From Spartobacteria bacterium (GTDB taxonomy: Bacteria; Verrucomicrobiota; Verrucomicrobiia; Chthoniobacterales; UBA10450): 64,000 bases of DNA. A program made the position numbers and the translations under genes. Numbering within the stretch: the first letter of the stretch is position 1; the number at the start of each line of letters is the position of its first letter. Shown here in pieces: positions 11,496-28,234 of the stretch. The notes beneath the pieces are model-generated. The model was not told where the DNA came from. It saw nothing but the letters and a program-made list of their open reading frames with translations, and did no database searches. The stretch is from NCBI GenBank assembly GCA_003134785.1, contig PLCN01000021.1, positions 62,001-126,000 of the forward strand, read 5' to 3'.

Positions 11496-12554
11496 CTAAG
11501 GGCTCCGCCACTTGTCAGGGCCGCCCTGATCAGTATGTCTGACGCGTTCCACATGCGGGGTTGCATCGGGCTCTAGCTCTTTTGCTCGCTCGATGGCCTC
11601 TTTTTGTGTGGGAAGGACATCGCTGGCTCTTTCCGAGCCGGCCCTTCTTACTGCCCAATCACCCTCGTCCCGCTGTTCAATGTATATTCTTTTGTCGCTC
11701 ATAGGATTTCCTTCGACTGCGTGCTTCTGAATCTCAAGAGCAAAATTTTCTGAGAAGGCGCTGGCATTGCGTTCCCGCACGATTTCATTTTCCACGGGCA
11801 CCTTTCCCAAGATACTTACCGCCTTGTCGAACGCGGAACGGAGTTCTTCTTCCTGCGGCTCGCCAAGCAACAAATAAAGCTTAAATGGCTCGGAGGTCTC
11901 AGAGACGCTCTGTATTTGTCCCAGCCACTCGTGCGCCTTGCGTTTGATGCTGTCACCAGAGCTTAGATCGAAAGAAAGCGGCTCAAGGCAATGCCAGACA
12001 CCATTCTTCCAAGCATACTGAAACTCCACCTCGTCATCCTGAACAACGATCTTCTTTGGCTTCAAGTGCTGCAGTACATGACGCGACTCGAGATTCCTCT
12101 TGTACTTTCTCCAAACGTCTTCATCTGAACGGCGCTCAACTGGCGGTCGCTCATCGTAGCGCATGACGAGTCGATCAAAGAGCGTCTCAAGTGTCGCGGA
12201 AACGTCATCAGCCAGTCCCCCTCCCGCTGGCGACCATTGGAGTGAGCTGTCATCCCGAGCAAGAACGGTCTGCGCGAGATCGAGCGCTGACTTCGGCAAT
12301 TTCTCTAGCGGAAGCTCACTCCTGTAACGGTCTCCCAATTCTTCGAAACGCGACTGGATGTGGCGCATCAGTCCGCGGAACGATTCGCCATCAATTCCGG
12401 GGAATGTTTTCGACAGTCGACCGTAGGTCGTACGACAGAGCGCGCTGGCGTAGCGGGCTTCGGGCGCGTAGAGCGCGACACCGACGTTTACGAATTCACC
12501 GGTCGTCGTGTCATGGACGTACCGCAAGACTGTGTATGTGTAGGCCGTCTTCAT
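11496..12554 (-). CDS. DUF3037 protein fused to a C-terminal DUF2188 domain
   Basis: The protein has 352 residues. The start MKTAYTYTVLRYVHDTTTGE followed by 'FVNVGVALYAPE' is the DUF3037 signature, and the ATG has AAGGAG 8 nt upstream. The last 68 residues, from 'MSDKRIYIEQRDEGDWAVRR', match the small DUF2188 module ('EAIERAKEL'). That internal Met at 11702 also has its own GAAGGA Shine-Dalgarno, so a short separate product is possible. The gene overlaps the upstream HipA-like kinase by ATGA. DUF3037 and HipA-like genes are commonly neighbours; their joint function is not established. It is the last gene of the defence-type operon. Confidence 0.8.
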   Translation of the reverse strand: MKTAYTYTVLRYVHDTTTGEFVNVGVALYAPEARYASALCRTTYGRLSKTFPGIDGESFRGLMRHIQSRFEELGDRYRSELPLEKLPKSALDLAQTVLARDDSSLQWSPAGGGLADDVSATLETLFDRLVMRYDERPPVERRSDEDVWRKYKRNLESRHVLQHLKPKKIVVQDDEVEFQYAWKNGVWHCLEPLSFDLSSGDSIKRKAHEWLGQIQSVSETSEPFKLYLLLGEPQEEELRSAFDKAVSILGKVPVENEIVRERNASAFSENFALEIQKHAVEGNPMSDKRIYIEQRDEGDWAVRRAGSERASDVLPTQKEAIERAKELEPDATPHVERVRHTDQGGPDKWRSP

Positions 12555-13348
12555 GCGAGTGCTCCTTGAAGCTGATTTATTGCCAAAGGAAGATGTTCTT
12601 TCAATGCGCGAATATAGTCGATAATCCGATTCACGCTTGTCGCATCCGAAATCCATTCTTGAGGTAGCGCTGCGCGGTATTCATCGATCCGCTTGTCCGC
12701 GATCGCTTCGAACGCTCCGGCCAGGCGATTCAAATCGAGAGTCCGTCCCCGCAGTTCTTCTTGGAATACATGGACGCTTTGAGGATTGCCCGGCGGGAAA
12801 TGCGCAGCACCAGGTTCCCACGGCGGTCGCCAGCCGAGAACTCCTTCTGTGATAAAGGCGAGCTCGTGATCATAGATACCGAATTCACGCCCGTTGAAGA
12901 GGAGGTTCGGATTCGCCACAGTTCTGTCGGGGTTAGCGATCAGATAGTCGAAGGCGAAGATTTCGGCCGCCAATCCGAGGAGGGAGCGGGGTATCGGTTT
13001 TTCGACCGGATAAGTCGCAAACCCCGGCGGCAGCTTCTTCGATCCGAATGCCAGGCGCGGACTCTTCAGCGCCTGTGCCTTTGCGGTCGCGTCGGGAATG
13101 GCCTGAACAAAATCCACCTCGACTACAACGACGAATGGCTCTGGCACGGGCAAGTCGAGATCGGCTGCGAGCATTGCACCGATAGCCTCTCTCACGAGCG
13201 CGAGTTCCCTCGCTTCGCAGCCCGCGACGAATTTTGCGACAACCTCGACTTCGCTTCCGTCATCACAAACGCATGCCATCAATGATGGCCGCGTCTTGCC
13301 GGTGCCGATCAGGCGATCGAATCGAATGGCGTTGACGCTCTGCAGCAT
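12551..13348 (-). CDS. HipA-like kinase domain protein
   Basis: The protein has 265 residues. The kinase-like pattern is visible: 'VVAKF' with Lys39 in the ATP-binding position, a catalytic-loop-like 'NPDRTVANPNLL' (Asp141, Asn146) and 'IYDHELAF' with Asp160 in the metal-binding position. It lacks the N-terminal subdomain of the persistence kinase HipA, as in the smaller HipA-like family that accompanies DUF3037. The start at 13348 (MLQSVNAIRFDR) is chosen on family grounds. The stop overlaps the DUF3037 start (ATGA), so the pair is translationally coupled. Substrate unknown. Confidence 0.8.
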   Translation of the reverse strand: MLQSVNAIRFDRLIGTGKTRPSLMACVCDDGSEVEVVAKFVAGCEARELALVREAIGAMLAADLDLPVPEPFVVVVEVDFVQAIPDATAKAQALKSPRLAFGSKKLPPGFATYPVEKPIPRSLLGLAAEIFAFDYLIANPDRTVANPNLLFNGREFGIYDHELAFITEGVLGWRPPWEPGAAHFPPGNPQSVHVFQEELRGRTLDLNRLAGAFEAIADKRIDEYRAALPQEWISDATSVNRIIDYIRALKEHLPLAINQLQGALA

Positions 13349-13356
13349 TCTGAATG

Positions 13357-14550
13357 TTACCTGGGAAGAACTTCGTCTGCGGTTCTGGCGATGTATCGAA
13401 CGAAAGCACTGATACGGTCCACCCAGTAAAGGCATTCTCGCTCGCTCAACTCAGAACTGGTGGCCTGGCCGTGGCGAACATCGGGATAGAGCTCATGAAT
13501 ATGGTTCCATATCGTTAACCCGTCTTTGACAATGCGATCTTCGCCCCAGCGCCCACCCACCCTAAGTGCCGTCGTCGCGTCTTTGATATCTTTTGTTGCG
13601 GTAGCCGTCTTGAGCAGGGACTCCATAGCAGAGAGGCAGTCGCGAAGGCCGTCCTTTCGCGCCCTTGCCGAATCAGGCGATCGAAGGTGTTCCAAAGCTT
13701 GCTTGAGATGCTCGAAAGCTTGATCGAACGAGGTTGCGAGGACGGAAACGGCGTCTTCCACCGTCTGTGTTCCGCCATCTACGGTGGTGCCCCGGATGAC
13801 CGGATCGAATATCGGCAACACCGGGCTTCGGGCGCGGTCTCGTTTAAGATGATCTATGAGACGGCGAACCTCGTCATCAAGACCGCGTTCTCGCAACCTC
13901 TCCAATTGCTCGTGAAATGCAGCTAGGGCCTGCCGCGCACCGACAACCGAATGCCAATCGACGCTCGCATAGTGGCGTTGAATTAACTGACGACGCTGGC
14001 CGACAAGCGCGTCGCCTTGTCGCGGCGGCTGTGGCTCGATACCAGCATCCGCAAAATCATGTGAGATATCGCGGAGAACGCCGTTCTGGACGTAGGAGTC
14101 TTCAAAGGCGTTCCGCGTCGCCGACGAGATAATCGGCCCTATGGTGCGCAGTTGTTCGATCATGGCTGAGGGAATTCCGCCGTCCTTGATCGCCCAATGA
14201 GTATGACCGTGTTCTAACCCATCGATACCGAGCCGGCTTGAGAATTCCTCAAGAATAGTCCGGTCGAGACGCCCAGCTTCAGCGAAGCGGAATACCAACT
14301 CCTTCCGCACAACCTGAACACTGCGGATCTGCCCATAGCGCACGACTTCGCTGTTCGCGCACTCCGTTCGACGCTCATACATCAACAAAGCCGGCGCGGT
14401 TTCGAGAAGTTTCAGTGACTCGGGATTCTCTACAGTCACCGACCCCGCTTCAGATCCCGGGCTGAAACTCTTGAAGCGCCCGAGTTCCATTCGCATCAAC
14501 TGATCCGTTTCCCACGCGTTAGGCCTGCCTGAAACAAGGAGACTAAACAC
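13357..14550 (-). CDS. unknown 397-residue protein in RM operon
   Basis: I do not recognise this protein with confidence. It starts at GTG just 3 nt after the hsdS stop and ends 8 nt before the HipA-like start, so it is part of the operon. The N-terminal 180 residues are mixed alpha/beta. The C-terminal third is all-helical ('FEHLKQALEHL', 'LRDCLSAMESLLKTATAT') and ends with 'LYPDVRHGQATSSELSERE', which resembles the helical C-terminal domains of abortive-infection proteins (Abi_C/HEPN-like). That resemblance is weak. A regulatory or effector role beside the kinase is an inference from position. Confidence 0.6.
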   Translation of the reverse strand: MFSLLVSGRPNAWETDQLMRMELGRFKSFSPGSEAGSVTVENPESLKLLETAPALLMYERRTECANSEVVRYGQIRSVQVVRKELVFRFAEAGRLDRTILEEFSSRLGIDGLEHGHTHWAIKDGGIPSAMIEQLRTIGPIISSATRNAFEDSYVQNGVLRDISHDFADAGIEPQPPRQGDALVGQRRQLIQRHYASVDWHSVVGARQALAAFHEQLERLRERGLDDEVRRLIDHLKRDRARSPVLPIFDPVIRGTTVDGGTQTVEDAVSVLATSFDQAFEHLKQALEHLRSPDSARARKDGLRDCLSAMESLLKTATATKDIKDATTALRVGGRWGEDRIVKDGLTIWNHIHELYPDVRHGQATSSELSERECLYWVDRISAFVRYIARTADEVLPR

Positions 14551-14553
14551 AGG

Positions 14554-15757
14554 TTAGAGCTCTCCTTTGAAAGCTTTGTCGAGGATGGCGGGGAGGAGGG
14601 CGTCGAGTTCGGCGGCAGTCTCGGCTTGCAGGCCCTTCAGCCCGTCCATTTCCGCTTGCAATGTGTCCAGTTCCGCCACGATTCGGCATTGCTCAGAAAC
14701 GGGAGGAACCGGCACCCTAAACGACTTAGCGTTTGCTCCGCTGATTCCGATATTGCCGGCGGTTGTCTTGCCGATCTCTTCGATTTGAGATCGGACACTG
14801 CGAGAACTTAGCGCGAACACCAAAAAGTCCGGCGTCATCTTCAAAGGATCGGGACGCAGCCGCATAAGTTTATCCGGATACACGATGCGAGTGCGGTTCT
14901 CACCTTTGTAGATCGCTGGCTTAGCCACGCGATCAATGTCGCCATTGTATCTAACGATAAAAACGTCGTCGTTTTGCAGTACAAAAGGCTGTGCATCTTC
15001 TTCGTCCACATCGACGTTCTTCACTGCAAGCGTATCGACGAATCGAGTAGGAGAACTCGATACTGCGTTAATACGCAGCATACCCCGGCCGCCGGTTTCC
15101 ACTCGTGCCTTCGGGGATAAACCATTGCGTGGAGATGTGGACAGCACGTCCGAAAGCGATTTAATCGACCAATCGCTTTCGTCGAGAAGCTTCGAAATTG
15201 CACGGTTCATCAGCGCCGCGGCTTCCTCAACGGCGTCGCGGCGGAGGGTGCGGGCCTCATCGATTTGGGCGGCCAGTTTTTCAACCTGTGTCACTACCCG
15301 TCGCTGTTCGGCCAACGGCGGCAGTGAAATTTCAAGCGCAAGAAAGCGATCTTCCTTTCAACCGAACTCGATTTGTTGTGCCTTCACTAGCACGTTGGCA
15401 AAGTTCGATGAATGGTGCAGTACGGCAGAGCCACTTGAGAAACGATGGATCGAGGTGTTGAGTGTTTACCTCGAACAGAGGAAAATCGTTAGTAACGAGA
15501 GCTCCATCGAGCGCGTCGGGTACAATTCCCATCGCGCCATTTCGGGCGTCAATCCGCGATGTGATGAATTGGCCAGCTCTGGCAACAAAACGTCGGCCCG
15601 CAAGGTCCGCGCCGACCGCACGGCCTCGTTCGATCACGCCCTTTCCCCAAAGGCGTACCGTGATCTCGCGATACTCCGCATCAATGCTCGGACTAATTGT
15701 TTCCCGCGACCGTTTGAGTAAGTCGTAGAGCTTAACTGCGGGCTGAACGTTACTCAT
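14554..15757 (-). pseudogene. hsdS: type I restriction specificity subunit HsdS, one-base frameshift
   Basis: Two partial frames make up one HsdS. The first (15757 to about 15360) starts MSNVQPAVKLYDLLKRSR and holds the first target-recognition domain. The second (from about 15355) holds the central conserved helix 'PLAEQRRVVTQVEKLAAQID', the second target-recognition domain and the C-terminal 'PVSEQCRIVAELDTLQAEMD' repeat. The frames join cleanly if one base is removed from the A-run opposite 15356-15358, giving 'RVRLKEDRFLALE'. The start overlaps the hsdM stop by 8 nt. HsdS chooses the DNA sequence; as read, only half-subunits would be made. It may be a true mutation, a phase-variable run or a sequencing error. 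Confidence 0.85.
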
Positions 15758-17282
15758 ATGTTGGAGGTGCAAGAAGATTTCTGATGTTTTCGATGATCTG
15801 CGTAATGCGCTGCTCTTTGTTTAGGATGTTAGCGGCTAGTTGGTCAGGTGAAAGATGCGTGATGTCTTCTTTGCCCCGTGTGTTCTTGCGATCAAGGTTG
15901 CAGCCGTTAGCCAGCAGTTCGGCCGTGGATACTTTCCATGCGCAGTCAGTTTCTTGACGGTCATTCCACCACTGCAAACAAGGAGTAAACTCCTCGAATT
16001 TCAGAGGGTTTGTTTTCGTGTAGCTCTTCCTGCCTTCGGGCAGTGGGTGTTCGTAGTACCACAGGTGTTCGGCAGGATTGGTCCTGTCAAAAAATAGGAT
16101 GTTTGTTGCGATATCAGCATAAGGTGAGAACACTCCTTTTGGCAGTCGGACAATTGTGTGGAAGTTGAACTCCTTGAGCAGCTCTTCTTTGATGCGTCCG
16201 CAAACGCCGTCGCCAAAGAGTGTGCCGTTTGGAACCACGACTGCAGCGCGTCCGCCTATGGGCGTGCGACGCAGCTTCCGCATGATCAGTTGCAGGAAGA
16301 GCAACGCTGTCTCCGCCGTTTGCTTATCGCTGGGGAAGTTCGCGAGAATTCCGCGTTCTTCCTCACCTCCAAACGGTGGATTGGTCAAAATGATATCCAC
16401 GCGATCACGATCGCCAATCTCCGTTATGCGGACGGCGAGCGAGTTTCCCGGGTTGATCTGCGGCGACTCAAGACCGTGCAGAAGCAGATTCATCTGCGCC
16501 AGTAGATACGGCAATGGCTTCGCTTCGCCACCAAAGATGCTGCGGGTCTGAACTGTCTCGCGATCCTCCACGGTTTTGCATTGCTTCTGTAGATTCGAAA
16601 ACGTTTCGACGAGAAAGCCACCGGTCCCGCAGGCCGGATCGAGGATGGTTTCGCCAAGCCGCGGATTGGTGACGGTTACGATAAAGCGGACGACCGCGCG
16701 CGGTGTGTAAAATTCCCCAGCATCGCCCGCAGCATCGCGCATCTCGCGTAGCATCGATTCGTAAAGGGCGCCGAGCGTGTGCAGTTCGTCGCTCGATCCG
16801 AAGTGAATGCCCGCGACCTTGTTGACCACATCGCGCAGCAGGTAGCCGTTGATCATGCGGTTGATCGTGCCTTTGAACACCGTCGCGATTACATCGCGCC
16901 GATCTCCGCCATCGCGTCCGACCAGGCTCTTCAGATAAGCGAACAATCCTGGCCCGCGGGTGCCATCCGGCCGGACTGCCTCTTCATTGTTCACGAACGA
17001 AATTAACTCATCGCCTGTTATACCCGCAGGGTTATTTGCCCAATCGCGCCAGCGATAAGGCTCATCAATCGCCCGCCGAAACTTCTTCCCTGCAAGCGTC
17101 GCTTCTTCCTCCCGCTGAAGCTCGAGATCATCAAGGAACTTCAGGAACATAATCCACGTCAGCATTGGCAACCGATCCAGGTCACCATTCAGTCCCTTAT
17201 CCTTGCGCATAATATCCCGCGCGGACTTCACGAGGGAGCCGAGGGATTGCGTAGTGGTCGCTGTCTTGAGAGCCCGCTTCAT
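15750..17282 (-). CDS. hsdM: type I restriction-modification DNA methyltransferase subunit HsdM
   Basis: The protein has 510 residues. It has the HsdM N-terminal helical domain ('LPMLTWIMFLKFLDDLE'), the AdoMet-binding motif DPACGTGG at residues 215-222 and the N6-adenine catalytic motif NPPF at 301-304. 'GEFYTPRAVVRFIV' is also classic HsdM. It methylates adenine in the sequence set by HsdS and forms the M2S core of the enzyme. Its start overlaps the TIR gene stop by ATGA, and its end overlaps hsdS. Full length for the family. Confidence 0.95.
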   Translation of the reverse strand: MKRALKTATTTQSLGSLVKSARDIMRKDKGLNGDLDRLPMLTWIMFLKFLDDLELQREEEATLAGKKFRRAIDEPYRWRDWANNPAGITGDELISFVNNEEAVRPDGTRGPGLFAYLKSLVGRDGGDRRDVIATVFKGTINRMINGYLLRDVVNKVAGIHFGSSDELHTLGALYESMLREMRDAAGDAGEFYTPRAVVRFIVTVTNPRLGETILDPACGTGGFLVETFSNLQKQCKTVEDRETVQTRSIFGGEAKPLPYLLAQMNLLLHGLESPQINPGNSLAVRITEIGDRDRVDIILTNPPFGGEEERGILANFPSDKQTAETALLFLQLIMRKLRRTPIGGRAAVVVPNGTLFGDGVCGRIKEELLKEFNFHTIVRLPKGVFSPYADIATNILFFDRTNPAEHLWYYEHPLPEGRKSYTKTNPLKFEEFTPCLQWWNDRQETDCAWKVSTAELLANGCNLDRKNTRGKEDITHLSPDQLAANILNKEQRITQIIENIRNLLAPPTYE

Positions 17283-18199
17283 CTCGATTTTTTGTCGCGT
17301 GCCATGTTGCTGCGGACAATCGCAGCCACTCTCTGCTGTTCTTCGGGAGTGAGCGGTCGCACCCTACCTCGCGTTGCATCGGAGACCCTGCGAAGCTCTT
17401 CCTCACCGTGCATCAGGATGTCTAGGCCAGTATCGGTGCCAAGCCGTCGGCTTTCCATGTGGATTGAATACCCAACGCCGATGTTACGATCATAGATATC
17501 CATCCGGTTATGCTTGGCATGCGCGTCTTCGAGTAGAACGAAAAACTCGTGATCTTGCAGCCCAACTAATATCGATTCGCTTATCATCAGCTGGCCCACC
17601 TCTTCGAAGCCGGCTTCTTGATAGGCCTTGTAACGCGCAGTCGCTTCTTTGGAGCCGATTATCGTGATCTGAACCAGCACCGAATACGGCAACTTAATCG
17701 AGTGCTTTACGATCGTTAGGTGAAGAATAACGAGATCGTCGATGAAGCCCCAATCGAGACTCCAATCGATGTGGTAGTCATCTTTCTCAATTCGCCCTAG
17801 ATGCGGACTCGTGAACTTAGCGATAGCTGTTCGGAGGGTCCCCAAGCCTGCGTCGAAGTCCATACGAAAATCGGCGAACTTCTTGTCTCGAAGGAACAGC
17901 GGAATAAGGCAATCTTCGATTAGTGCAGGGACGACAACGACCCGTCTCTCCTCAAGCTCTCGTTGAATACCTGCGGTCACTTCACGTTTGCACCAGATGC
18001 TCTCAACGGCCGACTTAGAGAACACCGCGACCAAGACTGAAGCGCCTTGGATGGCCGTCTGAATCCGTTCGATCAGCGATTCGCCAGCGGCAATTTCCCA
18101 TTCATCGAGCCACACCCAAGTTTTATCTCGAATAAGATTGAACGCGAGTTTGGTAACGAACTCTTTGTCTTTGTGGCTGTAACTGATGAAGACAGGCAT
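17279..18199 (-). CDS. TIR-domain protein inside the RM operon
   Basis: The protein has 306 residues. The N-terminal TIR domain begins 'PVFISYSHKDKEFVTKLAF', continues with 'VWLDEWEIAAGESLIERI' and carries 'SIWCKREV' with Glu73 in the position of the catalytic glutamate of TIR NADases. The C-terminal 170 residues are not recognised and may be a sensor or partner-binding part. Bacterial TIR proteins in defence systems deplete NAD or make signalling nucleotides. The stop overlaps the hsdM start by ATGA. The upstream 183-aa gene is 22 nt away. An abortive back-up to restriction is inferred, not shown. Confidence 0.85.
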   Translation of the reverse strand: MPVFISYSHKDKEFVTKLAFNLIRDKTWVWLDEWEIAAGESLIERIQTAIQGASVLVAVFSKSAVESIWCKREVTAGIQRELEERRVVVVPALIEDCLIPLFLRDKKFADFRMDFDAGLGTLRTAIAKFTSPHLGRIEKDDYHIDWSLDWGFIDDLVILHLTIVKHSIKLPYSVLVQITIIGSKEATARYKAYQEAGFEEVGQLMISESILVGLQDHEFFVLLEDAHAKHNRMDIYDRNIGVGYSIHMESRRLGTDTGLDILMHGEEELRRVSDATRGRVRPLTPEEQQRVAAIVRSNMARDKKSR

Positions 18200-18221
18200 T
18201 GTTGACGACTCTGGCCAGAAG

Positions 18222-18773
18222 CTACTTGTCCACCAAGCGAACCCCTACTTCTTCAATGCGAACTGGAGATCGTGCCAGCCACTCCGAGGTGCGTTTCAAC
18301 GGAACGTGACCATGTCGCTCAGCAATCTTTTGAGCCGCTTGATGTTCCGTGAGTGGAAAGGGATAGCCACGCTCCTTTTCGAGTCTTTCATGCTCCATCC
18401 TGAGATTTTCGATTTCAAGCCGAAGCTTTTCGCGATTTTGCGGCTTCATTTCGATGTAGTCAGCCATCTGAACAAGCGCCCACATCGCACTGATTGCCGC
18501 TGCCGTACACGTAATCTTTGCGATCAACTTGGTTGGAGATTCGTGCGACAAGTAATCGAGAATCAGTCTGTCGGCGTCAGCCAATGCGGAGGGCTGGCGG
18601 CGATAGGACCAAAATAATGGAGGCGGCGGGAGATCGATTTGCGCGTAGCTGTCGTCGGTGCCGAGACGCCCAATTTCGTAAATAAGATTTACGTTGTCGA
18701 GATAGGCTAACACCTCTACTAGAAGTGGATCCGGTCTTTCGCGTCCTATTATTGTGATTTCGATAGCATTCAT
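18222..18773 (-). CDS. unknown protein with membrane segment and coiled coil
   Basis: The protein has 183 residues and is not recognised. After an N-terminal alpha/beta part ('NAIEITIIGRERPDPLLVEV') there is one hydrophobic segment around residues 83-105 ('IAKITCTAAAISAMWALVQM'). A charged helix likely to form a coiled coil follows ('REKLRLEIENLRMEHERLEK'). It lies 7 nt after the hsdR stop and 22 nt before the TIR gene, so it is co-transcribed. The membrane segment plus helix suggests an anchoring, sensing or effector role with the TIR protein; this is speculation from context. Confidence 0.6.
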   Translation of the reverse strand: MNAIEITIIGRERPDPLLVEVLAYLDNVNLIYEIGRLGTDDSYAQIDLPPPPLFWSYRRQPSALADADRLILDYLSHESPTKLIAKITCTAAAISAMWALVQMADYIEMKPQNREKLRLEIENLRMEHERLEKERGYPFPLTEHQAAQKIAERHGHVPLKRTSEWLARSPVRIEEVGVRLVDK

Positions 18774-18780
18774 GATTCAG

Positions 18781-21150
18781 TTACGCTGCGTATAGTAACG
18801 TTTGTAGTTGATTGACCGCTTCTCGGAGCTTGTCTGCCCCACCGAATAACTTCCCGATTTCTATCACGTTCCCACGGTTAGAGATCGGTGGAACTTGAAG
18901 CGCGCCAGGCAAAACAAACTCGGCCGTTCCGTAGACTGCGTACTTCTCGACAAGCTGGTCTAATATCTCGCGAGCCTCGGGTCCGTACTGTTCGAAGAAG
19001 TCTTTGCGATCTTCCCGCAAGCGCTGGGCGCGTTCCCGTCTTGTGCGGAGGGGCGCGTTGAACGCTACGTGACATAGCAAGTCGAAGGGGTCGGCATCCG
19101 GCTGGTTCGCCGAAGCGGCCAACTCATCGAAGCTAATGCCGCGTTCTGCCAGCTTCTGAATAATCTCCGAGCGCGCTGAGGGGTTCGCCCACTGGTCGCG
19201 TAGTTCTAGAACGGACGGATATAACGTGCGGACTTTCTCGGCCGCGTAGTCGGAAAACTTTATAACGCGAAGCTGCTTGCCATCTGGATCGAGTTCGTAA
19301 ACAAGATGGGACGCGATCTCCACTTGTCCTCCATCAAAGTAGTACTTTCGCCTCTGGACTTCCGGGCCTTCGTTGATGATCGGATCGCTGAAGAGTTTGC
19401 CCTCGTCGGCCGCAACTTCTTCGTCAGGATCATCTTCACGGATGACGGTTGTTGTTCCTCCTGGCTTTAGTTCTTCCTCGGTGATCAGCGCCGGCTCGCC
19501 GTCAAAATCGGGATCAGCGAACAACCGCGTAGCGGAGCCGGTGTAGTCAAGAATGTTGAACCAGAGCTTGCCGTAGTCGTCGCGAACGCGCGTGCCGCGT
19601 CCGATAATCTGCTTGAACTCCGTCATTGAGCCGACGACGCGAGCAAGCACGATGTTCTTGCACGTGGGCGCATCGACGCCCGTTGTGAGCAGTTGCGACG
19701 TGGTGAGAATCACCGGTGTCTTCGTTTCCACATCTTGGAACCGCGAGAGGTGACCGCGGCCGATGTCTGCTTCGTCCGAAGTGACACGACAGACGTAGTC
19801 GGGAAACTGCTTCACCAGATCGGTGTTCAAATTGTTCAGCGCCTGCCGCATTTCGGAGGCGTGTTCCTGATCGACGCAGAAGATGATCGTCTTCGCGAAA
19901 CGATCGGTCTTCTTAAGGAAATCGGTGAGATGGCGCGCGATCGCTTCGGTGCGGGCGCGCAATGCTACGGCGCGCTCGAAGTCTTTCGTCTGGTATTCCT
20001 CATCAGGAATTGCGCGACCGTAGCGATCCAGTTCGTCTTTGCTGGGCCGCCAACCGGCTGCATCCCATTCTGATATGATGCGGTGGACCCGGTAAGGAGC
20101 CAGGAAGCCGTCTTCGATGCCTTGGCGCAGGCTGTATTGGTAAATGGGATTGCCGAAGTATTCGTAGGTGTCGCGGTTGTCGTCCCGAAGCGGCGTGGCC
20201 GTCATTCCCAGCTGCGAGGCGGGCTGGAAATATTCCAAAATCTCACGCCACGCGCTGTCTTCGCGTGCGCTGCCGCGGTGGCATTCGTCGACGATGATGA
20301 GATCGAAGAAATCAGGCGCGTATTCCTTGTAGAGACCGGGACGCCGCTCGTCTTTCGTGAGCGCCTGGTAGATCGCGAAATAAATTTCGCGGCTCTGAAT
20401 GAGTTTGCCGCCCTCGATCTTTGCCCGCGCGTCTCCGAACGCCGCAAAGATCTTATCCTTCGGGTCATCGATGAGAATGTTGCGATCAGCGAGATAAAGA
20501 ATCTTTGGCCGGCGGTGCTCGCGGTTGCGATTCCAACGTGCGCTCCATAGCTTCCAGCAGATTTGGAATGCGACAGGCGTCTTACCTGTGCCGGTCGCCA
20601 TTGTGAGAAGAACGCGGTGCTTGCCCGTCACAATCGCTTCGACAGCGCGGCTGATTGCGATTTGTTGGTAGTAACGTTCGCCTTGGCGCAGAGCGAAGTT
20701 GATTGGCGTGAGAAGCTGCTCAACCGCTGTGTCGTTCTTCAGGTTTTTGCCATCGCGAAACCGCTGCCACAGCGACCCCGGTGTCGGGTAGCTGGTTACG
20801 AGCTTCTCCGTTCCGGTGAAGTAATCGAACTCGATAATCTCGGGTCCGTTACTTGCGTAGGCGAACTTCAATCCGAGCATCTCCGCGTAGTTCTTCGCCT
20901 GCTGAAGACCGTCGGCCGCCGTCTTGTATTCTGGCTTCGCTTCCACGACAGCGAGTGGGAAGTCACGCCGGTAGCGCAGTAAGTAATCGACGCGCTTTGA
21001 CGGCCGGCGAATGAAGCTCTTTCCGACGGGAACGATTCGCCCGTCGGTGATTGTCCGCTGCTCCGCGATCGAATAGGGCTCGTTGTCCCAACCGGCAGCT
21101 TGCAGCTTGGGGACTACGAACTTGCGACAGGTATCAGCTTCAGAAGGCAT
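18781..21150 (-). CDS. hsdR: type I restriction enzyme endonuclease/translocase subunit HsdR
   Basis: The protein has 789 residues. The N-terminal nuclease has the PD-(D/E)xK pattern: Asp55 in 'RVDYLL' and 'VVEAK' at 68-72. The SF2 translocase follows with Walker A TGTGKT at 186-191 and DECH at 288-291, then the second RecA domain ('GRGTRVRDDYGKLWF'). The C-terminal helical part docks to the methylase core in this family. It translocates DNA and cleaves at a distance when the HsdS site is unmethylated. It is the first gene of the minus-strand operon. Full length for the shorter HsdR class. Confidence 0.95.
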   Translation of the reverse strand: MPSEADTCRKFVVPKLQAAGWDNEPYSIAEQRTITDGRIVPVGKSFIRRPSKRVDYLLRYRRDFPLAVVEAKPEYKTAADGLQQAKNYAEMLGLKFAYASNGPEIIEFDYFTGTEKLVTSYPTPGSLWQRFRDGKNLKNDTAVEQLLTPINFALRQGERYYQQIAISRAVEAIVTGKHRVLLTMATGTGKTPVAFQICWKLWSARWNRNREHRRPKILYLADRNILIDDPKDKIFAAFGDARAKIEGGKLIQSREIYFAIYQALTKDERRPGLYKEYAPDFFDLIIVDECHRGSAREDSAWREILEYFQPASQLGMTATPLRDDNRDTYEYFGNPIYQYSLRQGIEDGFLAPYRVHRIISEWDAAGWRPSKDELDRYGRAIPDEEYQTKDFERAVALRARTEAIARHLTDFLKKTDRFAKTIIFCVDQEHASEMRQALNNLNTDLVKQFPDYVCRVTSDEADIGRGHLSRFQDVETKTPVILTTSQLLTTGVDAPTCKNIVLARVVGSMTEFKQIIGRGTRVRDDYGKLWFNILDYTGSATRLFADPDFDGEPALITEEELKPGGTTTVIREDDPDEEVAADEGKLFSDPIINEGPEVQRRKYYFDGGQVEIASHLVYELDPDGKQLRVIKFSDYAAEKVRTLYPSVLELRDQWANPSARSEIIQKLAERGISFDELAASANQPDADPFDLLCHVAFNAPLRTRRERAQRLREDRKDFFEQYGPEAREILDQLVEKYAVYGTAEFVLPGALQVPPISNRGNVIEIGKLFGGADKLREAVNQLQTLLYAA

Positions 21151-21414: not shown

Positions 21415-22176
21415 ATGATGTTCCCCAAGAAGAACAAAAATCAGCCGGCATTGAAGGTGCGCCGCCGCCCCGGACAATCGATACGAGACGAAAAGGAGCG
21501 GCTCCTGGAAGATCGCTTGATGCCTTACGTCTTTGTCCCCTCGTTTCTGTGGGTGATTTGCTTAATCGAGTCGGCGCACGCGTGGTTGAATCAGCCGCCA
21601 ATGCCACGTTTCTGGCTTTGCGTTGCTATCGCGGCGACCGGGTTTTCCTGGATCGGCTTTCGCCGGTTGTTTCCCAAGTTCCGTAATCTGAATCGCGGGG
21701 AGCGCGGCGAATTGTGCGTTGCTGAAATCCTCGACGAGCTGCGCAGCTCTGGATATCGCGCCTTCCATGATTTACCCGGCGATGGCTACAATATCGATCA
21801 CGTGGTCGTCGGACCGGCTGGCGTTTTCGCAATCGAGACGAAATTTCGGAGCGGTTACGGCGAAATTGAATTTCGAAACGGTGAAGGCCTCTTCATCGGC
21901 GGCAGGCCAGAAGAAAAGGATTCTCTCAAACAAGCGCGTGGGAATGCGAGGGAGGTTAACCGAATCATCAAGGAAAACTGCAGCTTCGACGAGTGGGTCT
22001 GGCCGATCGTGGTGTTCGTCGGCGATTGGCGAGTCAAGAACGATTGGCAAACCACCGATGCGCGGGTGTTCACGACGAACGGGTTAGTGAGCCATATCGT
22101 GAATCAGCAGCCGCGACTCAGGCAGAGCGAGATCGAACTGATCGCATCACATCTCGAGCGCTCGGTGAAGAATTGA
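21415..22176 (+). CDS. NERD (nuclease-related) domain membrane protein
   Basis: The protein has 253 residues. Two hydrophobic segments (about 36-52 and 66-82) precede a NERD domain with 'RGERGELCVAEILDEL', Asp128 in 'NIDHVVVGPAGVFAIETK' and the ExK pair Glu141/Lys143. These are the residues of a PD-(D/E)xK-like nuclease core. It is divergent from hsdR, with about 264 bp between them. NERD proteins are found in DNA processing and defence contexts; activity here is not known. The start may be either of two adjacent ATG codons. Confidence 0.8.
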   Translation: MMFPKKNKNQPALKVRRRPGQSIRDEKERLLEDRLMPYVFVPSFLWVICLIESAHAWLNQPPMPRFWLCVAIAATGFSWIGFRRLFPKFRNLNRGERGELCVAEILDELRSSGYRAFHDLPGDGYNIDHVVVGPAGVFAIETKFRSGYGEIEFRNGEGLFIGGRPEEKDSLKQARGNAREVNRIIKENCSFDEWVWPIVVFVGDWRVKNDWQTTDARVFTTNGLVSHIVNQQPRLRQSEIELIASHLERSVKN

Positions 22177-22280: not shown

Positions 22281-23039
22281 ATGAAACTCCTGCATTGCAT
22301 GAAGCGGCGCGAGTATCTGGAGCAGGCCCTTCGAACAGGCCTAATGTTTACGGGACACGATGTGAGGTTTGCTCCAACTGAAGATCCAAAAGTGTTCGCA
22401 GGTCTCTTCGAACAAATCCTTCCGTTGCTGCACCAAAAACTCGCATCGCTCGGTCGTTCCTTCGATTTCCTGAGTGAAGGAGAGCGACAGGTGCTCATGA
22501 TGGGTTTAGGCGCAATGAGCGGATCTGTGCCGATGATCTGCTTAACCGAAGTTCCTGCTGGACGATCGATCGATGTCCATCAGGCGACGTTTGGCGGTTA
22601 TGGCCTAGTCATATCTCGTCGGTGGGTCGAATTGAACGGCGGAGACAAAGTTCTTTACGTCGGCCATAATTCCACAGCATCACGTCGACTTTTCCTATTA
22701 CTGGCCACGTTAAAAATATTTAGCCTGCATCTCGGGGCTAATGGCCAAGTGCTTTTCGAGAACAATGCATTCCGAGCCTCGCTCGATTTGCTTTGCTACG
22801 TCGAACGACGCGACTACCTAGAGGAAGCCGAATGGCGTCAAACCGGCAATCCCGGCTGGATGGGAGGAACGGTCGCGAATGGAACGAGGCTTCATCTGCC
22901 GATCGACGAAATCGAATTTGTGCTCGTTACGAATGACGCCGACGTCAAAGCGACGTCAACCCTCGTGCAAGAGCTAGCGGTTAAACAGAAATCGAAAAGT
23001 ATGCCAAAGACGATAGTCTTTCCCCGGCAACTCCCTTAG
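22281..23039 (+). CDS. AbiGi-like abortive infection protein
   Basis: The protein has 252 residues. The pattern 'VPMICLTEVPAGRSIDVHQA' followed by 'GGYGLVISRRWVELNGGDKV' resembles the AbiGi family, where a short N-terminal segment leads to 'CFTDIP' and 'YG..G' motifs. AbiGi belongs to an abortive-infection pair with AbiGii; no AbiGii-like nucleotidyltransferase is seen next to it. The gene follows the NERD gene by about 100 nt and flanks the restriction operon. Family assignment is by motif impression only. Confidence 0.55.
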   Translation: MKLLHCMKRREYLEQALRTGLMFTGHDVRFAPTEDPKVFAGLFEQILPLLHQKLASLGRSFDFLSEGERQVLMMGLGAMSGSVPMICLTEVPAGRSIDVHQATFGGYGLVISRRWVELNGGDKVLYVGHNSTASRRLFLLLATLKIFSLHLGANGQVLFENNAFRASLDLLCYVERRDYLEEAEWRQTGNPGWMGGTVANGTRLHLPIDEIEFVLVTNDADVKATSTLVQELAVKQKSKSMPKTIVFPRQLP

Positions 23040-23802: not shown

Positions 23803-24198
23803 TTACCACAGCGTCGGCACATCCGCATAGTCTCGCATTTTGCGGTCGCTCGTGATGATCGTCAGGTTGTGTCTGCGCGCTGTGGCGACGATCAGGCGAT
23901 CGGCGGGATCGCCGTGGAATTCGCCCGGGAGTTCATTCGCTTCGCGCGCAATCTCCGCATCGATGGGTATGACGCGAACGAAATTGGAGCGCAAGGCCAT
24001 CGCAAGCCAGCGATCGATGGGGAGCGAGAGAGCGAGCTTCCCTTTGCGAGCTTTCTGTCCGATTTCATAGATGCTGATGGCAGAAAGGCCGAATGGGGCC
24101 GTCCCAAGCGTCAGAATCAGGGACGATGCCGAGCTCGTGAGCTCCTCAGGCCGTTCGATCGAGCGGAGCCACGCATTGGTATCAAAGAGGTGTGTCAT
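23803..24198 (-). CDS. VapC-family PIN toxin
   Basis: The protein has 131 residues. The PIN signature is complete: 'THLFDTNAWLRS' with the first aspartate, 'GLSAISIYEIGQKA' with the conserved glutamate, and 'GDPADRLIVATARRHNLTII' with the last acidic cluster, then 'TSD'. VapC toxins are Mg-dependent RNases that cut tRNA or rRNA. The start at 24198 (ATG) overlaps the VapB-like gene by 17 nt. The pair sits between fragments of a decayed restriction locus and appears intact. Confidence 0.85.
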   Translation of the reverse strand: MTHLFDTNAWLRSIERPEELTSSASSLILTLGTAPFGLSAISIYEIGQKARKGKLALSLPIDRWLAMALRSNFVRVIPIDAEIAREANELPGEFHGDPADRLIVATARRHNLTIITSDRKMRDYADVPTLW

Positions 24199-24412
24199 CG
24201 CGCTCTGCGTTCCACTGCTCGAGTGGCTCGTCATCGTCGTCCCATCCGGGTTTTAAGATGATGGTGCCGCGCATGGAGCCAAGGTATTCAGCCATGTTCG
24301 CAGGAGCGCTCGTTTGCTTCTTCGTCAGCTCGGCTTCAATAGTTTGACGCAACGCTTCCAGTTCATTTACGGAGAGCTGCGTGATTTCGGCTTTGATCTC
24401 AGCGACTGACAT
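24182..24412 (-). CDS. VapB-like antitoxin
   Basis: The protein has 76 residues. The helical N-terminus 'MSVAEIKAEITQLSVNELEA' is followed by a flexible acidic tail ('GWDDDDEPLEQW') of the kind that wraps around a PIN toxin. It overlaps the start of the VapC gene. It would neutralise the toxin and probably repress the operon. The antitoxin class is inferred mainly from position and size. Confidence 0.75.
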   Translation of the reverse strand: MSVAEIKAEITQLSVNELEALRQTIEAELTKKQTSAPANMAEYLGSMRGTIILKPGWDDDDEPLEQWNAERDDTPL

Positions 24413-26202: not shown

Positions 26203-26247
26203 AAAAGGGAGCGAAGGCCGGGTATTGGCTCAATTTGATTTCGTCTT

Positions 26248-26416
26248 CTGAAAATAGCCCAGCGTTTTAACGCTGGGCTTCCATGGTGATGGAGTCCAAA
26301 GCCCCTTTAGGGACGGCAGACCCGGTTCTCTTCCCTGGCGCTCCTGTCGTCCCTAAAGGGACTCAATGTCTTGATTATGCGATTTTCCCAGCGTTAAAAC
26401 GCTGGGCTATTTTCAG
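26248..26416. repeat. 169-bp element with perfect 30-bp inverted repeats
   Basis: The arms at 26248-26277 and 26387-26416 are perfect complements over 30 bp. Each arm itself contains the near-palindrome CCCAGCGTTTTAACGCTGGG. A nested inverted pair, cctttagggacg and cgtccctaaagg, lies inside. The core is short and non-coding. The shape is that of a MITE or BIME; no direct target duplication is evident. The rest of 26158-26567 holds no recognisable gene. Confidence 0.85.
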
Positions 26417-26567
26417 CGAACACGGACGCAAATACGACCATATCTCTCCAAGGGTTTTGAAACTGAGCCACTACCGAAGCCGGTAAAGCCGGGATGTCGG
26501 CGGTGACACACCGCCGCTACAGGCGACGAAAGCGTGCGCGAGCAGGGTGATGTTGTATAAATAGGGT

Positions 26568-27136: not shown

Positions 27137-28234
27137 ATGAAAAAATTCACCAACTTACTGATCGTCTGTTCGCTGGCACTGGTTGGAGCCGTGATGGCTC
27201 AACAGCCACAACCGGAGGAGACACCAAGCAAAAAGCAGGGCCCTGAAAAAAAGCATCCGGCGGAAGTGAAGCCCGGACCGACGCATGCGCCGAAGCCTGA
27301 GGCCACGGCCGTGAAAGAGCCGGCGGCGACCCACACGCCGGCTGTGCCAAAGCAGGAGAAGAAGGCTTCCGGTGAAGAACCGGCCGCCGGCACGACGCCT
27401 CCCGCGAAGAAGCAGCAGCCGCCGCAGCGCACCAAAGAGAAGACGCCGGCCGCCAACGCGACGGCTTCGCCGAGTGCTACTCCGGCAGCACCCAAGACGA
27501 CGACTGCTACTCCGCCAGCAGCTAAGACGACGACTGCTACTCCCGCAGCAGCCAAGACGACTGCCACTCCGCCAGCAGCTAAGACGACGACTGCTACTCC
27601 CGCAGCAGCCAAGGCGACCGCTACCCCGGCAGCGACGGCATCGGTCAGCGCGGCTCCGTCCGTTTCGCCAACCAGCCAGACAAAGCCGCAGGTTAATCCA
27701 GCCGCAGCCAAGAAGCCGGATCCGCAGCAGGTGCAGCAGATCAAGACGCAGCACCAGAACTTTCACGCGCAGCCAAAGCCGGATAAGGTTCCGGCGGTCA
27801 CGTTCAGCGCGAGCTATCGGGTCCAGGGAAGCGAGCACTGGCAGGGGCCGCAATATGAAGTCTATCGCTCCTACCATCCGGAACGGCACGATCAGGGTTG
27901 GTATCGCTCGCATTACAATCGGGTGGAGCTAATCGGTGGCGGTTACTACTACTGGAACAACGGCTACTGGTATCCGGCGTGGGGCTACAGTCCTGCCGCC
28001 GAGTATTATGCTTACGATGCCCCGATCTATGTCGGTCAGAAGGCGGAGCCGCCGGACAAGGTGATCGCGGACGTGCAGGCCGTGCTCCAGGAGATGGGCT
28101 ACTACAAGGGTGACGTGGATGGATTGCTCGGGCCGTTGACCCGGGAGGCGCTTACCGCCTATCAGGCCGACCAAGGGCTCGTCGCGACACAGGTGATCGA
28201 CGAACCGACGCTCGACTCGCTCGGGATGGGATAA
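27137..28234 (+). CDS. secreted peptidoglycan-binding protein with Ala/Pro/Thr-rich linker
   Basis: The protein has 365 residues. A signal peptide (MKKFTNLLIVCSLALVGAVMAQ) leads to a long Lys/Pro/Ala/Thr-rich region containing tandem 'AAKTTTATP' repeats (nt about 27480-27630). A Tyr/Trp-rich block follows ('GGGYYYWNNGYWYPAWGY'). The C-terminal 60 residues form a PG_binding_1 domain ('VQAVLQEMGYYKGDVDGLLG'). It probably sits in the periplasm with the linker spanning or extending along the wall. A paralogue with a different linker is at 32887-33753. A terminator follows. Confidence 0.8.
   Translation: MKKFTNLLIVCSLALVGAVMAQQPQPEETPSKKQGPEKKHPAEVKPGPTHAPKPEATAVKEPAATHTPAVPKQEKKASGEEPAAGTTPPAKKQQPPQRTKEKTPAANATASPSATPAAPKTTTATPPAAKTTTATPAAAKTTATPPAAKTTTATPAAAKATATPAATASVSAAPSVSPTSQTKPQVNPAAAKKPDPQQVQQIKTQHQNFHAQPKPDKVPAVTFSASYRVQGSEHWQGPQYEVYRSYHPERHDQGWYRSHYNRVELIGGGYYYWNNGYWYPAWGYSPAAEYYAYDAPIYVGQKAEPPDKVIADVQAVLQEMGYYKGDVDGLLGPLTREALTAYQADQGLVATQVIDEPTLDSLGMG

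What the first reader, a model, noticed from the sequence alone, without database searches (positions are those of the whole stretch)
11496..21150. Type I RM operon carrying TIR, HipA-like kinase and DUF3037 modules
Eight same-strand genes run hsdR, unknown 183 aa, TIR, hsdM, hsdS, unknown 397 aa, HipA-like, DUF3037/DUF2188 with gaps of 3-22 nt or overlaps (ATGA at TIR-hsdM and HipA-DUF3037). Two extra modules are embedded in a restriction system rather than beside it. This suggests a composite defence in which restriction failure or a recognised phage component releases TIR or kinase effectors. Gene order and overlaps are seen; the coupled mechanism is inference.
Basis: partly seen in the sequence, partly recalled or inferred. 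Interest (0 to 1): 0.82.

Follow-up and report, generated by a model that had tools for sequence, protein, structure and literature searches.

The report
Restriction operon carrying swappable defence cargo
A bacterial DNA-restriction operon carries extra anti-virus modules (a TIR protein with an unknown partner, and a known kinase toxin with its antidote) which look like exchangeable passengers rather than parts of one new machine.

Summary
The gene run is real: minus strand, 21150-11496, hsdR, a 183-aa orphan (u183), TIR, hsdM, hsdS, a 397-aa protein, HipA_2 kinase, DUF3037-DUF2188, with 3-22 nt gaps or 4-8 nt overlaps. One correction: hsdS lies in two frames, so the RM system is not intact as assembled. 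HipA+DUF3037 is not new: it matches PADLOC PDC-M66, and published pairs of this kind (HipAD/DS-6; beside retron-Sda1) defend against phage, probably as toxin and antitoxin. The RM core is of the EcoAI/FtnUII family. Of 32 relatives examined with hsdR-hsdM order, 18 have at most 266 bp between R and M and 14 hold a different gene there; none has u183 or this TIR. A same-family genome with 87% identical HsdR has another gene at that place. HipA-DUF3037 recurs in unrelated RM gene runs and also with no RM in view. Two same-genus genomes hold other defence genes at this site. Best reading: a carrier type I operon in a defence hotspot with interchangeable modules on one transcript, each probably acting on its own. 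PrrC-like release of TIR or kinase on restriction failure has precedent but no support here. What is new is the u183/TIR pair.

The parts
18781..21150 (-). hsdR, EcoAI/FtnUII-family type I restriction subunit, 789 aa
   Evidence: NF046051 1039 bits, cut-off 550; PADLOC REase_I 1.1e-212; 87% identical copy in G411
18222..18773 (-). u183: orphan 183-aa protein, first cargo gene in the R|M slot
   Evidence: No Pfam family at 0.05, no PADLOC or NCBIfam family at 0.01 (at E 1 only a weak coiled-coil match, 0.054); no relative in 386 other phylum genomes, 57 close relatives, plasmids, phages or viral contigs (close relatives only)
17279..18199 (-). TIR-domain protein, 306 aa: TIR at 3-122, orphan C-terminal region 128-306; second cargo gene in the R|M slot
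   Evidence: TIR_2 9.7e-28; E73 aligns with the Glu two to three residues behind the Trp of AbTIR and other TIR structures; C-terminal part has no relative in 386 other phylum genomes or 57 close relatives
15750..17282 (-). hsdM, type I methyltransferase subunit, 510 aa
   Evidence: N6_Mtase 2.8e-63; PADLOC MTase_I 4.5e-189
14554..15757 (-). hsdS in two frames (15757-15332, then frame open from 15357 to 14554): disrupted as assembled
   Evidence: PADLOC Specificity_I for both halves; phase change and 26-nt overlap
13357..14550 (-). u397: post-S cargo; N-terminal part shared with other defence-linked proteins, C-terminal half PDC-S32-like
   Evidence: PDC-S32 3.8e-6; N-part matches a Sinorhizobium protein three genes ahead of an RM M subunit and an FRG protein beside Drt2; C-part matches two proteins that hit PDC-S32; none in 57 close relatives
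12551..13348 (-). HipA_2-family kinase (PDC-M66A), toxin of the HipAD-like pair
   Evidence: HipA_2 1e-18; PDC-M66A 2.5e-67; start 13348
11496..12554 (-). DUF3037 (PDC-M66B) fused to DUF2188 (PDC-S16-like): putative antitoxin of the HipAD-like pair
   Evidence: DUF3037 1.4e-18, DUF2188 2e-10; PDC-M66B 2.4e-91; start 12554
21415..22176 (+). NERD-domain gene, divergent neighbour that marks one side of the defence hotspot
   Evidence: NERD 4.4e-17; 65% identical copy beside a different type I RM in G390

Best explanation
An EcoAI/FtnUII-family type I RM operon (order R-M-S) in a chromosomal defence hotspot, which has taken up interchangeable defence cargo in two slots: u183+TIR between hsdR and hsdM, and u397 plus a HipA_2/DUF3037 pair behind hsdS. 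Shown: gene order, tight or overlapping junctions, family membership, a different cargo gene beside a near-identical hsdR, recurrence of HipA-DUF3037 in other RM gene runs, and different defence genes at the same site in two same-genus genomes. Inferred: one transcript; HipA-DUF3037 is a stand-alone toxin-antitoxin abortive-infection module (kinase toxin restrained by DUF3037); the TIR protein is an NAD-degrading effector with u183 as its partner (sensor, activator or restrainer); u397 is a further accessory. The modules complement restriction and travel with it; no physical dependence on HsdRMS is required. With hsdS frameshifted as assembled, restriction and modification may be off while the cargo could still work.
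For: Gene and family identity; junctions. Cargo exchange: hsdR 87% identical in G411 but followed by an unrelated 231-aa gene, and G411 lacks u183, the TIR C-terminal region and u397; of 32 relatives in R-M order, 14 hold a same-strand gene of at least 174 aa between R and M, none of them u183 or this TIR, and 18 have at most 266 bp (families). Post-S module: a Pseudorhodobacter plasmid has R-M-S-HipA-DUF3037 (HsdR 62%, HipA 34%, DUF3037 41%), the only HipA match among 72,556 plasmids at 1e-10. In 387 phylum genomes there are 11 other HipA places: 4 lie on one strand in or at the end of a type I RM gene run, 1 abuts a DNA methylase gene on the same strand, 2 stand beside RM or methylase genes on the other strand, 4 have no RM gene in view; 10 of 11 have DUF3037 next door. 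Hotspot: G390 has the NERD neighbour, then another type I RM with its own extra genes; G393 has a helicase, a IIG-like methylase and an AAA protein. Published function of related pairs.
Against: No expression or phage data. Only one genome was found with this composite, so independence of the modules is inferred from relatives. u183 and the TIR C-terminal region have no relatives found, so their pairing rests on adjacency alone. The broken hsdS could mean that the whole operon is decaying. The overlaps TIR/hsdM and HipA/DUF3037 would also fit functional coupling. In the same 386 other phylum genomes HipA relatives are rare (9 genomes) and several matches are weak (E up to 5e-4).
Confidence: 0.66

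Rival explanations
1. PrrC-like coupled second line: the HsdRMS complex holds the TIR (with u183) or the HipA kinase inactive, and phage anti-restriction factors or failed restriction release it.
For: PrrC is silenced by EcoprrI and activated by T4 Stp (PMC2610378, passages); cargo sits inside the operon with an overlap at TIR/hsdM.
Against: The same hsd family occurs with other cargo or none; HipA-DUF3037 occurs with no RM gene in view and a related pair defends with its host retron disabled; hsdS is frameshifted as assembled, so the complex may not form.
Confidence: 0.15
2. Decaying island: the frameshifted hsdS shows an inactivated RM operon whose remaining genes are passengers without current function.
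For: hsdS in two frames; hsdS of the Pseudorhodobacter relative is interrupted by what looks like a transposase gene (by eye); orphan cargo genes.
Against: The other seven frames are intact over 9.6 kb, and catalytic motifs of TIR and kinase are present; a single-base assembly error would give the same picture.
Confidence: 0.12
3. TIR, u183 and u397 serve the RM system itself (sensor or regulator of restriction) rather than being separate effectors.
For: Position between R and M, short gaps.
Against: The R|M place is filled in relatives by toxin-like or nuclease-like genes such as Zeta_toxin, OLD-like ATPases, PDDEXK_3, FRG and RhuM-Fic, and is empty in others.
Confidence: 0.07

Closest known systems
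HipAD / DS-6 / PADLOC PDC-M66 (HipA-like kinase + DUF3037)
   Same: Same two families as neighbours (order seen here, with a 4-nt overlap); PDC-M66A 2.5e-67 and PDC-M66B 2.4e-91
   Different: DS-6B carries DUF1829 with DUF3037 (PMC13092281, passages); here DUF2188 is fused instead, and the pair sits behind hsdS and u397
RRDM island of EPEC, DarTG2 embedded in a type I RM (PMC12255303, passages)
   Same: A toxin-antitoxin defence module inside a type I RM operon
   Different: DarTG2 lies between hsdS and hsdR, a different toxin, with a RptR repressor gene at the head; no such regulator was identified here
PrrC-EcoprrI (PMC2610378, passages)
   Same: Effector genetically linked to a type I RM; the model for coupled release
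   Different: PrrC is an anticodon nuclease; no such domain was found in this run and there is no evidence of contact with Hsd proteins
Embedded defence candidates, 'guilt by embedding' (Payne et al. 2024 preprint; not held, not read; seen cited)
   Same: Finding new defence genes inside known systems is this pattern; PDC families come from that work
   Different: u183 and the TIR C-terminal region match no PADLOC family
TIR effectors such as AbTIR, Thoeris ThsB, CRISPR-associated Cat1
   Same: TIR domain with the aligned glutamate
   Different: No Thoeris, CBASS or CRISPR partner among the operon genes; own orphan C-terminal region

Membership tests
Type I RM, EcoAI/FtnUII family | HsdR equivalog score above cut-off | tested here: met
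   NF046051 1039 bits, cut-off 550
Type I RM, EcoAI/FtnUII family | Intact HsdM and HsdS giving a complete enzyme | tested here: not met
   HsdM intact; HsdS split over two frames, so a complete working system is not claimed as assembled
HipAD / PDC-M66 | HipA_2 kinase beside a DUF3037 protein | tested here: met
HipAD / PDC-M66 | Kinase catalytic residues present | tested here: inconclusive
   D170 (NPDR) and D189 (IYDHE) lie in the HipA_2 match; their catalytic role is recalled, not tested
HipAD / PDC-M66 | Kinase toxic, DUF3037 neutralises, phage protection | not testable with these tools
   Reported for a related pair in PMC12548924 (passages)
Thoeris | TIR ThsB with ThsA effector | tested here: not met
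   ThsB-like matches of about 1e-5 or weaker; no ThsA match among the operon genes
PrrC-type coupled anticodon nuclease | PrrC-like ATPase/anticodon nuclease in the hsd operon | tested here: not met
   No such domain in any gene of the run
PDC-S32 | Full-length profile match | tested here: inconclusive
   3.8e-6 over residues 156-391 only

The most novel reading that the evidence does not exclude
u183 and TIR form a new two-gene TIR immune system carried between hsdR and hsdM and held in check by the type I RM complex, so that phage anti-restriction proteins trigger NAD depletion: a TIR counterpart of PrrC/EcoprrI.
Probability: 0.1. Interest if true: 0.8.

Novelty: new variant of a known kind. 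Interest (0 to 1): 0.45.

Why it matters
It shows one type I RM family acting as a carrier with a busy cargo slot between hsdR and hsdM (14 of 32 relatives examined), which gives a direct way to find new defence genes, and it names one such undescribed pair (u183 + TIR). It also tempers the idea that genes inside an RM operon must be mechanistically coupled to it.

Tried and rejected
Conserved composite: rejected. u397 has none in those 57 either. For u183 also none in plasmids, phages or, with a scan that finds close relatives only, viral contigs. None of the 39 loci had TIR or u183. The genome-contig scan with the TIR protein gave one locus, matching in the TIR domain only (residues 4-79, 32%). 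In plasmids the TIR protein gave 17 records: 16 match up to residue 136 at most and one Nostoc match spans 12-206 at 27%. u397 gave no relative in viral contigs.

HEPN for the 231-aa gene in G411: suspected by eye, no Pfam match even at E 1, so not claimed. AlphaFold2 without alignment for u183 (pLDDT 44.6) and TIR (33.7) is useless; no fold search was made. Neither u397 nor the kinase finds a solved relative by sequence. Thoeris: no partner gene.

Rows and choices: of the first 28 hsdM places listed, 25 were fetched (left out: own, G145 at a contig end, a second place in G159). Of 53 plasmid records, the 9 with at least 60% identity were considered and 7 fetched (two near-duplicates left). 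So the 32 are the nearest relatives found, not a random sample. In one search, 39 loci were examined: 32 counted, 5 with M before R set aside, 1 without hsdM on its contig (G411), 1 without hsdR in view. R-M gaps are between tblastn alignment ends. Two other fetched loci with distant hsdR (L040, L041) were not in that count. Of the seven other same-genus genomes, two were read at the matching site; stretches of G391 and G392 (L137, L138) gave only partial matches to the flanks and were not taken further.

Papers: a search for TIR domain + type I restriction-modification + embedded + hsdR in the held library gave 0 papers; other searches. Only passages found by term were seen of PMC12548924, PMC13092281, PMC12255303, PMC2610378 and PMC12988326; the Payne preprint was not read.
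Full report
WHAT IS THERE. In order of transcription: hsdR 21150-18781; u183 18773-18222; TIR 18199-17279; hsdM 17282-15750; hsdS from 15757 to 14554; u397 14550-13357 (GTG start); HipA_2 kinase 13348-12551; DUF3037-DUF2188 12554-11496. Families rest on Pfam, PADLOC and NCBIfam. Junctions are gaps of 3 to 22 nt or overlaps of 4, 8 and 4 nt. On the minus strand the only terminator-like site of the scan lies upstream of hsdR; one promoter-like site was found, inside hsdM, against 4.6 in shuffles. A single transcript is likely but not shown.

A CORRECTION. hsdS is not one gene as assembled. Its N-half ends at 15332; the C-half is open from 15357 in another phase. The halves align one after the other to a single HsdS of a relative, most clearly that of Vibrio: N-half to residues 5-134 at 52%, C-half to 163-382 at 26%. 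No long homopolymer is seen. It is either a frameshift mutation or a sequence error; the genome is a 25-contig assembly.

THE KINASE PAIR IS KNOWN. HipA_2 plus DUF3037 matches PADLOC candidate PDC-M66 strongly. In PMC12548924 (passages) such a pair beside a retron protected against phage Bas51 with the retron RNA deleted or the reverse transcriptase inactivated; deleting the kinase removed protection and deleting DUF3037 was toxic. PMC13092281 (passages) validates DS-6, renamed HipAD, where a kinase mutation removes defence.

THE PAIR OFTEN RIDES WITH RM GENES. A search of 387 phylum genomes gave 11 places in 9 genomes besides the window's, several of them weak. Read with 9-17 kb of context: R, M-S fusion, HipA, DUF3037 in G371; M, S, R, HipA, DUF3037 in G211 contig 1; S, HipA, DUF3037, M in G327 (with spacers of about 0.3-0.5 kb around the pair); S part, other genes, HipA, DUF3037, HsdR in G240 contig 7. 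These four are on one strand in type I gene runs. In G314 the pair abuts an N6_N4 DNA methylase gene on the same strand; no restriction gene was verified there. In G238 (type I R and M) and G284 (Eco57I-type methylase) the pair stands beside such genes on the other strand. In G243, G383, G211 contig 2 and G240 contig 6 no RM gene was seen; the last also lacks DUF3037. In plasmids the single HipA match is on a Pseudorhodobacter plasmid directly behind an R-M-S set of the same family as the window's, with hsdS interrupted by what looks by eye like a transposase gene.

THE SLOT BETWEEN hsdR AND hsdM. Nearest relatives of hsdR and hsdM were fetched from plasmids and genomes. In 39 loci examined, 32 have R then M on one strand. 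In 18 the gap between aligned ends is at most 266 bp. In 14 it is 486 to 1892 bp (the window: about 1.5 kb), and each holds at least one same-strand ORF of 174 aa or more. By Pfam nine of these are Zeta_toxin, AAA_15, AAA_21 with OLD-like TOPRIM, DUF4143 with AAA_14, RhuM with Fic, DUF3800, PDDEXK_3, FRG and ORF6N; five loci (L039, L143, L145, L146, L147) have no match or only a weak one. None is u183 or TIR. The sharpest case is G411, same family: HsdR is 87% identical, but the next gene is an unrelated 231-aa protein, and u183, the TIR C-terminal region and u397 are not found in that genome, which is 90% complete; its matching hsdM was not found, only distant ones. M|S also takes genes (YhcG nuclease in Azotobacter, RhuM in G158).

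THE SITE IS A HOTSPOT. Of seven other same-genus genomes, two were read at the matching site. G390 has the NERD neighbour (65% identical) and then another type I RM, HsdM-HsdS-unknown 380 aa-HsdR-unknown 249 aa. G393 has a PLD/SNF2 helicase, a IIG-like methylase and an AAA protein between matches to both flanks of the window's operon. In G411 the neighbour of hsdR matches window 27137-28234 (78% over 172 aa), which suggests the same region, though that gene has a paralogue in the window.

THE NEW PART. [quoted passage not shown] The TIR domain itself is ordinary, with E73 aligned to the glutamate that is catalytic in AbTIR (alignment; catalytic role recalled). Two genes 22 nt apart in a cargo slot are a fair candidate for a two-gene TIR system; which of them senses is unknown.

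HOW IT MOST LIKELY WORKS. Restriction, if hsdS is intact in the living strain, cuts unmodified DNA early. The kinase pair would act as an abortive toxin-antitoxin unit and the TIR pair as a second abortive effector by NAD loss. Shared transcription and co-transfer explain the layout. Direct control of the effectors by the Hsd complex, as in PrrC/EcoprrI (passages), is possible but unsupported: cargo and core are exchanged, and the kinase pair is found without RM genes in view.

KNOWN OR NEW. Embedding of defence genes in RM operons is in print (RRDM island; guilt-by-embedding). HipAD is in print. A search for TIR with type I RM and embedding found no paper in the held library, which lacks bioRxiv preprints as such and most subscription journals. 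So: a new variant of a known kind, with one undescribed cargo pair and a counted cargo slot.

Noticed in passing
L087 (G238 contig 92) 3186-3248, 6488-6553, 7840-7971: Three copies of the hsdS 3' end (75-86% identical over 21-45 residues to the window's HsdS tail) separated by other genes, as if each post-S insertion duplicated the hsdS tail. A possible clue to how cargo is inserted.
   Followed up: no
window 22281-23039 (+) and 23803-24234 (-): AbiGi-like protein (Pfam 3.2e-6) and a PIN-domain protein (1.4e-17) beside the RM operon: further defence or toxin-antitoxin genes in the same hotspot.
   Followed up: partly
window about 26220-26480: A roughly 260-bp element found in many copies in the same-genus genome G389 and at least once more in the own genome (93%), with matches on both strands: a dispersed repeat or miniature element.
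   Followed up: no
L080 13810-16360: hsdS of the Pseudorhodobacter R-M-S-HipA-DUF3037 plasmid locus is interrupted by what looks by eye like a transposase gene, so a second locus also has a broken hsdS with open cargo frames.
   Followed up: partly
L156 1255-5476: A relative with R-M-S followed by further genes and a DUF3037 protein next to a DUF1828-like protein (weak, 0.0019) instead of HipA: possibly DUF3037 with another toxin.
   Followed up: no
L134 9418-17965 (G390): A different type I RM at the same chromosomal site with its own unknown genes, 380 aa between S and R and 249 aa behind R, without PADLOC match at 1e-5.
   Followed up: partly
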